Origin: Phycisphaeraceae bacterium
GTDB taxonomy: Bacteria; Planctomycetota; Phycisphaerae; Phycisphaerales; UBA1924
Direction of reading: 5' to 3'
DNA: 64,000 bases
NCBI GenBank assembly: GCA_021297895.1
Contig: JAJTHN010000010.1
Coordinates: 1-64,000 of the forward strand
Part shown: positions 23,829-29,000 of the stretch, one piece after another
Numbering within the stretch: the first letter of the stretch is position 1
How the letters are laid out: each line of letters opens with the position of its first letter
Notes under the pieces: model-generated
The model's database searches: none
Told to the model about the DNA's origin: nothing
What the model saw: the letters and a program-made list of their open reading frames with translations, nothing else
Program-made: the position numbers and the translations under genes

Positions 23829-25697
23829 ATGTCCGCGCTGGTGACGGGTTCGAAGCGACCGCGGGAACTTTCGTGGTATCACGCGGGGCCTCTGCTCTTC
23901 GGAGACTGGGGGACCAGCCGGCTGTATGTGCTGGGGCTGGCGTTCTACTACACGGGTCATGCCTCGCCGTTGTACCTGGCCGCGATGAGCGTGGTCATGA
24001 TCGCCGTGGCGTGGGCGTACTCGGTGATCTGCCGGGTGTTCCCCGATGGCGGCGGCGTGTACGCGGCGGCGCGGCAGCTCTCGCCGACGCTGAGCGTGAT
24101 CGGCGCGACGCTGCTTCTGTGCGACTACATCGTCACGGCGAGCCTGTCGGCGATCGAGGGCTTCCACTATCTCGGTGCGCACGAGTCATGGGTAGTTCCC
24201 TTGAGCATCGCGTGCATCCTGCTCATCGGTGTGGTGAACTGGCTCGGCGCACGCAGCGCCGGACGCTTTGCGCTGGTCATCGCGGTGGTGGCGATCGGAA
24301 TGTCGGCGCTGGTCGCGCTGCTGTGCTTGCCGCTGCTGAAGGAGGGAATCGAAACGATCTCGACTGGTCACTCGTCGATCAGCGATCCCTGGACGCGCTG
24401 GGAGAACTTCATCCGGGTGATTCTGGCTCTGTCGGGGCTCGAGGCGGTTGCGAACATGACCGGGCTCATGAAGCAGCCCGTGGCGCGGACGAGCAAGTTC
24501 ACCATCTTCCCCGTGCTGGTGGAGGTTGTGGCGCTCAACCTGATCTTCGGCATCGCGCTCAACGCGCTGCCGGCGCTCAAGCCCGTCGACAAGCCGCACT
24601 ATGTGCAGTACGAAGTTGAGCAGGGACTCAAGCCCGAGCAGGTGCCCGACGAGATTCAGGCCTACCGCAACACCGCGATGAAGGAACTGGCCAGCCACGC
24701 GACGACGGAGGCGACGGGATCGCCGACGGCCGGGCGCGTGATGGGCATCGTCGCCGGCATCATTTTCGGGTTGCTGCTCATCAGCGCGGTAAACACGGCG
24801 ATCATGGCGATGGTCGCGGTGCAGTACTCGATGGCGATGGACCGGGAGCTGCCGGGCGGACTGACCAAACTGAACTACTCGGGCGTGCCGTGGATCGCGC
24901 TGATATTGGCGTGCATCGCGCCGGGGGTGCTGCTGCTCTTTGAGGCCGACGTCAAGAGCCTTGGCGAGCTGTACGCCATCGGCGTCGTCGGGGCGATCAC
25001 GATCAATGTGCTCTCGTGCGCGATCAACCGTGCAGCCCCGATCGGCCTGTGGGAACGCCGCGGCATGTGGGTGCTGGGCGTGTTCATGGCCGGCGTGTTC
25101 GTGACCATCTGCATCGCCAAGCACAACGCGTTCATCTTCGCGACGGCGATGGTGGGCGGCGTGTTGGTCGTGCGGTTCATGGTCAACACGAGACGGCGGA
25201 TGGTCGAGGCCCGCGCACTGCCGGTGCCGGCGATGGGCTGGATGGCCGAACTGACGCGCGAACCGACCGCGGCGAAGGCCGATGCCCCGCGCATCATGCT
25301 CGCGGCCCGCGGTCGCGCCCAGAGCGAGTACGCCGTGAACATGGCCAAGCAGCGCGGCGCGATGCTCTTTGCGATCTACGTCCGCACGCTGCGGCTGCTG
25401 GACGTGCAACCGGGCCAGATCCCGCAACTGGCCGACGACCCCTCAGCGCAGGAGGCGCTCGGCACCACCGCGGTGCTCGCGCACCAGGCCGGAGTCCCGT
25501 TTGTCCCGATCTACGTGACCGCGACGGACATCGCCGAGGAGATCCTGGACTACACCGTGACCTTCGGCTGCGACACGCTGATCATGGGCAAGACCAAGCG
25601 ATCACTCTTTGCGAGAAAGCTCGAGGGCGATGTCGTAACGCGCGTGGCCGAGCTGCTGCCTGAGGGCGTGAGCCTGCGGTCGCGCGAGGCGCCGTGA
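23829..25697 (+). CDS. APC-family permease fused to a universal-stress-protein-like domain
   Basis: The first 460 residues are a 12-helix amino acid/polyamine/organocation transporter: HAGPLLFGDWGTSRLYVLGLAFYYTG at the N-terminus, the core motif FPDGGGVYAAARQL and LSGLEAVANMTG. An extended hydrophilic loop of about 60 residues (residues about 258-315, VDKPHYVQYEVEQG...EATGSPTAG) interrupts the membrane domain. The last 150 residues form a soluble alpha/beta domain resembling UspA (APRIMLAARGRAQSEYAVNMAKQRGAMLFAIYVR...CDTLIMGKTKRS). APC-USP fusions are known; the USP part may bind nucleotide and gate transport (inference). ATG 23829 is chosen; ATG 23784 adds 15 residues. Confidence 0.82.
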   Translation: MSALVTGSKRPRELSWYHAGPLLFGDWGTSRLYVLGLAFYYTGHASPLYLAAMSVVMIAVAWAYSVICRVFPDGGGVYAAARQLSPTLSVIGATLLLCDYIVTASLSAIEGFHYLGAHESWVVPLSIACILLIGVVNWLGARSAGRFALVIAVVAIGMSALVALLCLPLLKEGIETISTGHSSISDPWTRWENFIRVILALSGLEAVANMTGLMKQPVARTSKFTIFPVLVEVVALNLIFGIALNALPALKPVDKPHYVQYEVEQGLKPEQVPDEIQAYRNTAMKELASHATTEATGSPTAGRVMGIVAGIIFGLLLISAVNTAIMAMVAVQYSMAMDRELPGGLTKLNYSGVPWIALILACIAPGVLLLFEADVKSLGELYAIGVVGAITINVLSCAINRAAPIGLWERRGMWVLGVFMAGVFVTICIAKHNAFIFATAMVGGVLVVRFMVNTRRRMVEARALPVPAMGWMAELTREPTAAKADAPRIMLAARGRAQSEYAVNMAKQRGAMLFAIYVRTLRLLDVQPGQIPQLADDPSAQEALGTTAVLAHQAGVPFVPIYVTATDIAEEILDYTVTFGCDTLIMGKTKRSLFARKLEGDVVTRVAELLPEGVSLRSREAP

Positions 25698-25704
25698 GCG
25701 GTGT

Positions 25705-25929
25705 TCAGCCGCGGTACTCGCTCTCAGGAATCTCCGCACCCTTCATGATGCTCATCATGGTTCCGAGCGGCAACGTTCGACCGGCATGCACCGGCACGAT
25801 CACCTGAAGGTTCTTGGAGGGATGACGCCACTTGCGGTGGCTGCCCTTCTACGAAATCTGCTCGAGCCCAAACCTGCGAAGGATTTCCTCCACCTCACGG
25901 GCCGTCATTCGTCGAATTCGCTCACCCAT
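25705..25929 (-). pseudogene. hicA: HicA family mRNA interferase toxin interrupted by an in-frame amber codon
   Basis: Read on the minus strand from ATG 25929, the 75-codon frame gives a HicA-like sequence: RMTAREVEEILRRFGLEQIS, then TAG at 25849-25851, then KGSHRKWRHPSKNLQVIVPVHAG, ending in EIPESEYRG and TGA. HicA is a small double-stranded-RNA-binding-fold nuclease whose catalytic His is in the GSH motif. That motif is intact here, and the stop is in the codon just before its KGSH, where family members often have Gln or Arg. One C-to-T change from CAG would explain it. The ATG shares its A with the hicB stop (TGATG). The 26-codon product should be inactive unless the amber codon is suppressed. 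Confidence 0.8.
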
Positions 25930-26129
25930 CAGGCGGCCACTTCACGAAGCACGGCGCTCGGGGGAAGCTCGATCGGGTCCTTCTGGAGGTACAGCTCGAT
26001 CGCCTCCTTGATGTTCGCCATCGCCTCGGCCTCGGTGAGGCCCGCCGAGGCGCAACCGGGAAGTTCGGGCACCCATGCTGCCCAATCGCCTGTTTCGGGG
26101 TCCAATTCGAGTACAACTCTCCAAGTCAT
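25929..26129 (-). CDS. hicB: HicB family antitoxin
   Basis: A 66-residue protein of the short HicB type. It starts MTWRVVLELDPETGDWAAWVPELPGCASAG, the typical degraded-RNaseH-like HicB fold, followed by EAEAMANIKEAIELYLQK. It stops before a DNA-binding domain, as short HicB proteins do. It normally binds and inhibits HicA and here precedes hicA with a one-base stop/start overlap, the reverse of the more common hicA-hicB order. Since the toxin frame carries a stop, it is probably an orphan antitoxin. An open frame continues far upstream but is antisense to pcrA and has no coding character. Confidence 0.85.
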   Translation of the reverse strand: MTWRVVLELDPETGDWAAWVPELPGCASAGLTEAEAMANIKEAIELYLQKDPIELPPSAVLREVAA

Positions 26130-26210
26130 ATCGAACTTTAGGCGACCCCCGAGCAGTGCCGACGACGCGAGCAGTATGGGGTCTAAACTGCGATCGGAGG
26201 TGACGCGCGC

Positions 26211-29000
26211 GTGAGCAGTTGCGGGAGCGATGGTGAGTCCTGGGGATCGATCGATCCCGTCGAGCCCGAACCGACGCCGCAGATGCCGGCTCGGCCCGGC
26301 GTCGGCGCGCCGCGCGGCTTTGGCAATCCCTTCGCCGCCGACGGGAGGAGCACGCCTCTGCACCCGGCGCCCGCGGATCGCGCGGGCGGTCATGCCGCCG
26401 CGGGACGGGTCAGCAACGAGGCGTTCGCGCAGTCGCTGGTGGACGGGCTGACACCGTCGCAGGCGCAGGCGGTCCGGACCACCGAGGGCCCGCTGCTGGT
26501 GCTGGCGGGGCCGGGCTCGGGCAAGACGCGGGTGATCACGCGGCGGATCGCGTACCTGATCAGCCAGGGTGTGAGCCCGTGGCGGATTCTCGCGGTGACG
26601 TTCACGAACAAGGCCGCGGGCGAGATGCGCGATCGCGTCATGAGCCTGCTGGGCGGGCCGGAGTCGGCGCTGACACGCGGGCTGACGGTCACGACGTTCC
26701 ACAGCCTGTGCGTGCGTCTGCTGCGCCGGTACTCGGAACTCGGCGGGCTCGGGGAGCGCGGCCTGCTGAAGCAGAACTTCAGCGTGTACGACGCGGATGA
26801 TCAGGCCAAACTGATGAAGGGCATCATCACGCAGCTGGACCTGAGCACGCAGAACTTCGCGCCGCGCTCGGTGCTGAGCGAGATCTCCGCCGCGAAGAAC
26901 GAACTCATCGACGAGTCCCGATTCTTGCAGGAGGCCGCGGACTTCCGCCAGCGCCAAGTCGCTCGGTGCTACACCGCGTACCAGCACGCGCTGCGTCTGG
27001 CCAACGCGTGCGACTTCGACGACCTGCTGATGCTCACGGCCCGGATGCTCAAGGACTCCGCGAGCGTGCGTGCCGAGGTTCAGTCGCGATTCCGGTACGT
27101 GCTCATCGACGAGTATCAGGACACCAACCGCGCCCAGTTCACCATCGCCTCGGCCATCGCCGGCGGCGGCGAAGCGGGCGCCGCGGCGGGCGCCAAGCCC
27201 AACATCTGCGTCGTCGGCGATCCGGACCAGTCGATCTACGCCTGGCGCGGGGCGGACATCACGAACATTCTGCAGTTCGAGCAGCGATACCCCGGCGCAT
27301 CGGTCGTGCGGCTGAGCGAGAACTTCCGCTCGCGCGCACCGGTCCTGAAGGTCGCCGACAGACTCATCCAGCACAACACCCAGCGCAAGCACAAGCCGCT
27401 GACGCCCACCCGCGGCCCCGGTCGCGTCGTCGAATGCGTGCTGACGCGCGATGAGCATCACGAGGCGCGCCTTGTGCTCGACTGGCTCCGTGCGCGACTG
27501 GGCGAAAGCCCGTCGCACTCGTGGAAGGACTGCGCGGTTTTCTACCGCACCAACGCCGCATCGCGCGTGCTGGAGGACTCGTTCCGCCGCGCCAACGTGC
27601 CGTACGTGCTTGTCCGCGGCACGGCGTACTACGAGCGCGAAGAGGTCCGCAACGCGATGGCGTACCTGCGCACGATCGCCAACCCGCTCGATTCGGTCTC
27701 GCTGGAGCGCATCATCAACACGCCCGCCCGAGGCATCAGCGACCAGACGGTCGCGCGATTCCGCGAGACGGTGGAGTTGGGCGCGGCCCCGACACTGATC
27801 GATGCGCTCCGCTCGCCCGCCGCGGCGCCCGGGCTGAACGCCCGCGCTGTGCAGGCCGTCGCCCGGTTCGTGCAGCAGCTCGACGCGTGGCGCACGATCG
27901 AGCGCGAAGAGACCGAGGGATTCATGGGCTCGGGCGTGGAAATCGCGCTGGCGGATCTCGTCGAGCGCGTCATCAGCGAGAGCGGTCTGCGGCAGCACTA
28001 CGCGCAGGAGCCCGAACGCCTGGAGAATCTCGACGAACTGGTCTCCTCAGCCCGGGAGTTTGAGAACGACTGGCTCGCGGGTGTCGGCGCGATCGACGGA
28101 TCCGCGACGCCCGTCGACGACGATCCGTTCGGCGCGGCGGATCTGGCGCAGGCCTTCGCAGATGCTTCCGGCGACGCCGCGGCAACCGAGCCGGGCGCTG
28201 ATGCCGGAGCCGAGGTGAACGAGGAAGCTCGCATCGTCCGGCCCGGCGTGCTGGAACTCCTCCGCGCGTTTCTTGAGAAGGCCGCGCTCGTGGCCGACTC
28301 CGATGCACTGGACCCAGAACGCGGCGCGGTCACGCTCATGACGCTCCACGCGGCCAAGGGCCTCGAGTATCCGTTCGTCTGCGTCGTCGGCTGGGAGGAG
28401 GGCATGCTCCCGCACATGCGCTCGCTCGATGGCGATGAGAAGATGATCGAGGAAGAGCGTCGCCTCGCATTCGTCGGCATCACCCGCGCGATGGAAGCGG
28501 TCATGCTCACCAGCAGCGCGTTCCGGACCATCCGCGGCCTGGCCGAGCGGCAATTGCCCAGCAGATTTCTTGATGAGCTCAAGGGCACCGACGTGACCTT
28601 CAGCGACCAGAGTGACCCGTTCGCCGGCATGGGCCGCGATCGCGATGGTGACGGGGACATGGACAGTGACCTGTCGCGATTCGTGCAGGGAGGCCGCGGC
28701 CGCGGGCCTGGACGCGCCGCGCCGGCGCACGATGAGTACTCGCAGTTGCCCGAAGATGAGGCTCTGGCCCGTGCTCGCGCAAAGGCAGCCTCGCTGGGCT
28801 CGAACCCGGGCAGCACCGGGCGCCCGAACACACCCATCGGCGACGACTATCGCCCCGGCGAGAGCGTTCGGCACCCGCAGTTCGGGCTGGGCACGGTCAA
28901 GAGTTTCTCCGGCGGTGTCAACGCCCGGATCATCGTGGACTTCAAGGGTGTCGGCGTCAAGACGCTCGTGGTCGCGTACGCGCGGCTGACACGCGCGTGA
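26211..29000 (+). CDS. pcrA: UvrD/REP-family 3'-5' DNA helicase, PcrA type
   Basis: Superfamily 1A helicase of 929 residues. Motifs in order: TPSQAQAVRT (Q motif), the P-loop GPGSGKTR (residues about 100-106), VTFTNKAAGEMRDRV (Ia), TFHSLCVRLLRR, DEYQDTN (Walker B, about 300), GDPDQSIYAWRGAD (III), LSENFRS (IV), VTLMTLHAAKGLEYPFVCVVGWEEGMLPH (V) and EERRLAFVGITRA (VI). An N-terminal Pro/Gly-rich extension of about 75 residues precedes the helicase. The C-terminus ends in the PcrA-type Tudor segment (GESVRHPQFGLGTVKSF). GTG 26211 has GGAGG nearby. The enzyme acts in repair and replication-conflict removal. Confidence 0.93.
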   Translation: MSSCGSDGESWGSIDPVEPEPTPQMPARPGVGAPRGFGNPFAADGRSTPLHPAPADRAGGHAAAGRVSNEAFAQSLVDGLTPSQAQAVRTTEGPLLVLAGPGSGKTRVITRRIAYLISQGVSPWRILAVTFTNKAAGEMRDRVMSLLGGPESALTRGLTVTTFHSLCVRLLRRYSELGGLGERGLLKQNFSVYDADDQAKLMKGIITQLDLSTQNFAPRSVLSEISAAKNELIDESRFLQEAADFRQRQVARCYTAYQHALRLANACDFDDLLMLTARMLKDSASVRAEVQSRFRYVLIDEYQDTNRAQFTIASAIAGGGEAGAAAGAKPNICVVGDPDQSIYAWRGADITNILQFEQRYPGASVVRLSENFRSRAPVLKVADRLIQHNTQRKHKPLTPTRGPGRVVECVLTRDEHHEARLVLDWLRARLGESPSHSWKDCAVFYRTNAASRVLEDSFRRANVPYVLVRGTAYYEREEVRNAMAYLRTIANPLDSVSLERIINTPARGISDQTVARFRETVELGAAPTLIDALRSPAAAPGLNARAVQAVARFVQQLDAWRTIEREETEGFMGSGVEIALADLVERVISESGLRQHYAQEPERLENLDELVSSAREFENDWLAGVGAIDGSATPVDDDPFGAADLAQAFADASGDAAATEPGADAGAEVNEEARIVRPGVLELLRAFLEKAALVADSDALDPERGAVTLMTLHAAKGLEYPFVCVVGWEEGMLPHMRSLDGDEKMIEEERRLAFVGITRAMEAVMLTSSAFRTIRGLAERQLPSRFLDELKGTDVTFSDQSDPFAGMGRDRDGDGDMDSDLSRFVQGGRGRGPGRAAPAHDEYSQLPEDEALARARAKAASLGSNPGSTGRPNTPIGDDYRPGESVRHPQFGLGTVKSFSGGVNARIIVDFKGVGVKTLVVAYARLTRA

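What the first reader, a model, noticed from the sequence alone, without database searches (positions are those of the whole stretch)
25705..26129. HicAB locus with an amber codon directly before the toxin's catalytic motif
The hicB antitoxin is intact. The downstream hicA frame is clean HicA on both sides of a TAG at 25849-25851. The catalytic GSH motif follows immediately and looks unmutated. Either the toxin was silenced by one base change and the antitoxin survives as an orphan, or the amber codon is read through at low level, which would be a way to throttle a lethal RNase.
Basis: partly seen in the sequence, partly recalled or inferred. Interest (0 to 1): 0.7.

Follow-up and report, generated by a model that had tools for sequence, protein, structure and literature searches.

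The report
Nonsense-silenced HicA toxin with intact antitoxin
A planctomycete carries an acquired HicBA toxin-antitoxin pair whose toxin gene is stopped by a single in-frame TAG just before its active site while the antitoxin is untouched, an ordinary decay of a kind that turned up repeatedly in related gene pairs and always struck the toxin gene.

Summary
On the minus strand, hicB (26129-25929) is intact. hicA (25929-25705) is full HicA except for TAG at codon 27 (25851-25849), one lysine codon before GSH. It is a small hicBA pair (class 2 of Gerdes 2024) inserted between a permease/Usp gene and a UvrD-type helicase gene that lie 50-80 bases apart in three relatives without hicBA.

Best explanation: the toxin was silenced by one nonsense change. 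In related loci (mostly 50-73% identity) this codon is glutamine without exception. The genome has 45 tRNA genes, none with anticodon CTA, has RF1, and uses TAG as an ordinary stop. It has no other HicA.

The decay recurs and is one-sided. In this HicA subfamily 22 of 77 hicA genes beside an intact hicB are broken (stops, frameshifts, truncations); no hicB is broken. Across the phylum 21 HicA genes with in-frame stops were found, against none in a ribosomal-protein control. Four others have a stop at exactly the same codon, each beside an intact hicB. Glutamine codons make that only mildly unexpected.

Read-through is not excluded but nothing supports it. Toxin-first decay is what addiction logic predicts: a clean example of a known kind.

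The parts
25929..26129 (-). hicB, small antitoxin (66 aa, no DNA-binding domain), intact, with stop TGA 25931-25929
   Evidence: PF15919 32.5 bits, E 1.1e-7; full-length HicB homologues in the same position in 77 related loci
25705..25929 (-). hicA toxin frame, interrupted; start overlaps the hicB stop (TGATG)
   Evidence: PF07927 58.8 bits over all 58 positions with X at the stop; up to 73% identity to 80 related loci
25849..25851 (-). in-frame TAG, codon 27 of hicA, at a codon that is CAA or CAG (Gln) in intact relatives
   Evidence: SQKGSH in 62 and SQKGCH in 1 of 63 relatives whose frame reaches the motif; codons CAA/CAG
25837..25845 (-). GSH motif with the presumed catalytic histidine, unmutated, downstream of the TAG
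   Evidence: sequence GGC AGC CAC
25698..26210 (.). inserted segment: 513 bases between the permease/Usp gene (ends 25697) and the UvrD-type helicase gene (starts 26211); hicBA 61% G+C against 66-69% in the flanking genes
   Evidence: three relatives have the two genes about 50-80 bases apart with no hicBA

Best explanation
This is an acquired class-2 hicBA toxin-antitoxin pair whose toxin gene has been inactivated by a nonsense mutation at codon 27, most simply one C-to-T transition in a glutamine codon. Shown: intact hicB, interrupted hicA, Gln at this codon in relatives, RF1 and no suppressor tRNA in the genome, empty site in relatives, no second HicA. Inferred: ribosomes make HicB, re-initiate at the overlapping ATG, make 26 residues (helix 1 only) and terminate at UAG. 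The peptide lacks the beta sheet and the catalytic histidine. Every in-frame ATG, GTG or TTG after the stop lies beyond GSH, so internal re-initiation cannot restore an active RNase. HicB is left without a target in this genome. Toxin loss comes first because loss of the antitoxin while the toxin works would kill or arrest the cell.
For: Gln at the codon in all relatives of the subfamily that could be read. 45 tRNA genes, none with CTA anticodon. RF1 (PAT motif) and RF2 (SPF motif) both encoded. TAG ends 5 of 37 long ORFs in the window. hicA broken in 22 of 77 subfamily loci with intact hicB, hicB broken in none (sign test by arithmetic about 5e-7, loci not fully independent). 21 PF07927 genes of the phylum carry in-frame stops; in the same class draw bL27 has none in about 150 listed, and the 12 HicB hits flagged with stops only run past their natural ends. 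Window HicA departs at 4 of 32 columns conserved at 90% or more, against 0-3 in 50 of 53 intact relatives, a weak sign of relaxed constraint. Empty site.
Against: The frame beyond the TAG is still open and well conserved (21 of 23 conserved columns kept), so either the change is recent or something still selects the rest. No sequence from the same genus was available to date the change. Expression was not measured.
Confidence: 0.86

Rival explanations
1. Amber read-through throttles the toxin: near-cognate tRNAs read UAG at low level and a trace of full-length HicA is made, held by HicB.
For: Intact downstream frame and GSH motif. Stops at exactly this codon in four other HicA genes of the phylum, each with an intact HicB neighbour: 5 of 21 genes. 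With transition/transversion weights of 2-8 about 1-1.8 would be expected without the window, P 0.02-0.09.
Against: The stop kind is not kept (two TAG, three TAA), and TAA and TAG need different suppressors. Other stops lie elsewhere, and frameshifts and truncations are as common. No suppressor tRNA. Relatives of the same subfamily have Gln. The excess at this codon is not convincing once the share of Gln codons and the choice among columns are counted (some column reaches 5 of 22 in 36% of draws).
Confidence: 0.06
2. The TAG is an assembly or sequencing error, or one allele of a mixed population.
For: The genome is a draft in 84 contigs and no reads can be inspected.
Against: bL27 in the same set of genomes shows no in-frame stop in about 150 listed genes, so substitutions to stop are not a general fault of these assemblies; the frame is otherwise clean.
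Confidence: 0.06
3. hicB is kept by selection as a stand-alone gene (for example as protection against HicA arriving on plasmids) after the toxin was lost.
For: HicB beside broken hicA is nearly as conserved as beside intact hicA (about 1 departure each, Mann-Whitney P 0.06). A 64%-identical HicA lies on an Anabaena plasmid. Anti-addiction has been suggested for orphan antitoxins (PMC7192599).
Against: Recent toxin loss gives the same picture with no selection on hicB. The weak excess of changes, if real, points to relaxation. It is compatible with the best explanation, not an alternative to the silencing.
Confidence: 0.2

Closest known systems
Class 2 hicBA modules (Gerdes 2024, PMC10865869)
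   Same: hicB first, hicA second, overlapping genes, HicB of 63-103 codons without DNA-binding domain (here 66 aa), HicA of about 74 codons with GSH
   Different: hicA carries an in-frame TAG at codon 27
Orphan antitoxins left by TA decay (Klebsiella survey, PMC7192599)
   Same: antitoxin gene intact beside a toxin gene that no longer qualifies as functional, in the same genetic context
   Different: different phylum; here the lesion is defined to one codon and the one-sidedness is counted in one subfamily
HicA-type protein of PDB entry 1whz
   Same: closest solved relative (E 4e-8, residues 11-73), aligned across the stop without a gap
   Different: its K-G-G-H replaces K-G-S-H; no stop

Membership tests
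HicA toxin (PF07927) | profile match over the whole domain | tested here: met
   58.8 bits, positions 1-58, cut-off 27, with X at the stop
HicA toxin (PF07927) | conserved G-S-H with the active-site histidine | tested here: met
   KGSH kept in the frame, beyond the stop
HicA toxin (PF07927) | one uninterrupted reading frame | tested here: not met
   TAG at codon 27; a degraded HicA gene, not a working HicA
HicA toxin (PF07927) | RNase activity, toxicity | not testable with these tools
   needs expression
HicB antitoxin (PF15919) | profile match and open frame | tested here: met
   32.5 bits, cut-off 27; residues 5-50; 66 codons without a stop
Class 2 hicBA module (PMC10865869) | hicB upstream, 63-103 codons, no DNA-binding domain, genes close or overlapping | tested here: met
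   66 codons, match limited to the N-terminal part of the profile, TGATG overlap
Programmed stop-codon read-through | stop conserved among relatives with constraint on both sides | tested here: not met
   63 of 63 subfamily relatives whose frame reaches the motif have Gln
Recoded UAG (suppressor tRNA or pyrrolysine) | tRNA with CTA anticodon or loss of RF1 | tested here: not met
   no CTA among 45 tRNA genes; RF1 present. A pylT unlike ordinary tRNAs was not searched for separately.

The most novel reading that the evidence does not exclude
In this HicBA subfamily the toxin is lost over and over while HicB is kept because HicB on its own is useful (protection against incoming HicA, or another role), so that the pair is in passage from addiction module to stand-alone antitoxin.
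Probability: 0.15. Interest if true: 0.45.

Novelty: new member of a known kind. Interest (0 to 1): 0.2.

Why it matters
The locus is one well-defined case of toxin-first decay of a toxin-antitoxin pair. The useful by-product is a count: 22 of 77 hicA genes broken, 0 of 77 hicB genes broken in one subfamily spread over Planctomycetota, Cyanobacteria and Acidobacteriota. That count can test whether orphan antitoxins are mere leftovers or are kept by selection. If read-through were real it would be a new way to throttle an RNase toxin, but nothing here points to it.

Tried and rejected
Amber suppressor tRNA: none among 45 tRNA genes. Loss of RF1: rejected, PAT-motif RF1 on contig C78. Genome-wide recoding of TAG: rejected, TAG ends 5 of 37 long ORFs of the window. 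Internal re-initiation giving an active toxin: rejected, the later start codons lie beyond GSH. A programmed stop at this codon: considered because five HicA genes of the phylum share the position; weakened by a mutational-opportunity model (P 0.02-0.09 without the window; some column reaches 5 of 22 in 36% of draws) and by the mixture of stop kinds. HicB control in the class survey: 12 of about 150 hits were flagged with stops, but all were C-terminal stops overrun by the profile. Promoter and terminator scan of 25600-26400: nothing. NCBIfam and PADLOC: no match for either protein. No structure prediction was run, because the sequence families settle the fold.

Full report
The observation. 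On the minus strand the window holds hicB (ATG 26129, TGA 25931-25929, 66 aa) and hicA (ATG 25929 in a TGATG overlap, TGA 25707-25705, 74 codons). HicB matches PF15919 with 32.5 bits; the hicA frame with X at its stop matches PF07927 with 58.8 bits over all 58 positions. The stop is TAG at 25851-25849, codon 27, followed by AAG and then GGC AGC CAC (GSH). The closest solved relative, PDB 1whz, aligns across the codon without a gap.

The codon in relatives. A scan of one genome per species gave 80 loci with this HicA, mostly at 50-73% identity, in Phycisphaerales and other Planctomycetota, Cyanobacteria, Acidobacteriota and a few others. The frame reads ..SQKGSH.. in 62 of the 63 relatives in which it runs through the motif and SQKGCH in the other; one of the six search patterns contained QKGSHRKW, so this is slightly biased. 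The codons checked are CAA or CAG. The simplest history is therefore one C-to-T transition in a glutamine codon. No match to this protein came from a genome of the same genus, so the change could not be dated.

Can the amber codon be read? The genome (3.48 Mb, 84 contigs, 97% complete) has 45 tRNA genes over the family cut-off; all have sense anticodons and none is CTA. It encodes RF1 (PAT motif) and RF2 (SPF motif), and TAG ends 5 of 37 long ORFs of the window. UAG is thus an ordinary stop. Leaky reading by near-cognate tRNAs cannot be excluded by sequence. The 26-residue product would contain helix 1 only; later start codons lie beyond GSH.

How ordinary is a stop in HicA? Surveys with PF07927 over the family, order, class and phylum listed 21 genes with in-frame stops, about 2-6% of the listed matches of each search. 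The same search in the same class set with ribosomal protein bL27 listed about 150 genes and none had a stop. With PF15919, 12 HicB hits were flagged, but in all of them the stop is the C-terminal end that the profile overran. So stops in HicA are a property of HicA and not of the assemblies.

Is this codon special? Four other HicA genes of the phylum (G069 TAA, G470 TAG, G829 TAA, G807 TAA) have the stop at exactly the same column, each beside an intact HicB. Counting every single-base change to a stop in 51 intact genes, weighted for transitions, and separating genes with and without the GW motif, 1.1-1.8 such stops are expected without the window and four were seen, P 0.02-0.09. Some column or other reaches five of 22 in 36% of draws. 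The column is rich in Gln codons, which accounts for most of it. The kinds of stop differ (TAG, TAA), which does not suit a single read-through mechanism.

Which gene breaks? In 77 subfamily loci with hicB on the contig, a single frame covering HicA end to end exists in 55; 22 are broken: in-frame stops (L141, L150, L189, L193), frameshifts (for example L188, L196, L203, L205, L206, L210) and truncations or insertions (for example L202, L204, L207, L213). HicB is full length in all 77. By a sign test 22 to 0 is about 5e-7, though some loci are related and some frameshifts may be sequencing faults. HicB next to broken hicA is about as conserved as next to intact hicA (means 1.1 and 1.0 departures, P 0.06; the first group includes the window). 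Toxin-first decay is what the logic of an addiction pair predicts: losing the antitoxin first is lethal.

State of the broken gene. The window HicA keeps 21 of 23 conserved columns after the stop and 7 of 9 before it; in total it departs at 4 of 32, more than 50 of 53 intact relatives. Its terminal branch is not unusually long. The stop is thus probably recent, with at most a faint sign of relaxed constraint.

Origin. The permease/Usp gene and the UvrD-type helicase gene that flank hicBA are neighbours about 50-80 bases apart in three relatives without hicBA; here 513 bases separate them, and hicBA has 61% G+C against 66-69% in the flanking genes. The pair was most likely acquired. It is the only HicA and the only PF15919 HicB in the genome.

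Comparison. By gene order, HicB size and overlap it belongs to class 2 hicBA of PMC10865869, with the toxin degraded. Orphan antitoxins are a known outcome of TA decay and have been suggested to act as anti-addiction genes (PMC7192599). Searches of the held papers showed none describing stop-codon read-through in a HicA toxin; that library is partial.

Verdict. An ordinary, well-defined pseudogenisation of the toxin with the antitoxin still intact. Its value lies in the count of one-sided decay in the subfamily rather than in a new mechanism.

Noticed in passing
G000 contig C78:500-1627 (locus L047): The RF1 of this genome scores below the NCBIfam prfA cut-off and contains a run of about 16 glycines in a loop (LDLTPDSDGGGG...GIRSVTL); whether it is real or an assembly effect, and whether it alters termination at UAG, is not known.
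   Followed up: no
L134-L213 (80 loci): A HicBA subfamily shared by Planctomycetota, Cyanobacteria and Acidobacteriota shows broken hicA in 22 of 77 loci and never a broken hicB.
   Followed up: partly
L007, L101, L115, L117: Four distant HicA genes have a TAA or TAG at exactly the same codon before the K/R/S/T-GSH motif as the window gene, each with an intact HicB neighbour.
   Followed up: yes
L196 and L210 upstream of hicA: Two HicB proteins carry the same extra stretch (REAMSNDKPLCVYALYL in place of REAIALYL), apparently an in-frame insertion in the antitoxin, both beside broken hicA.
   Followed up: no
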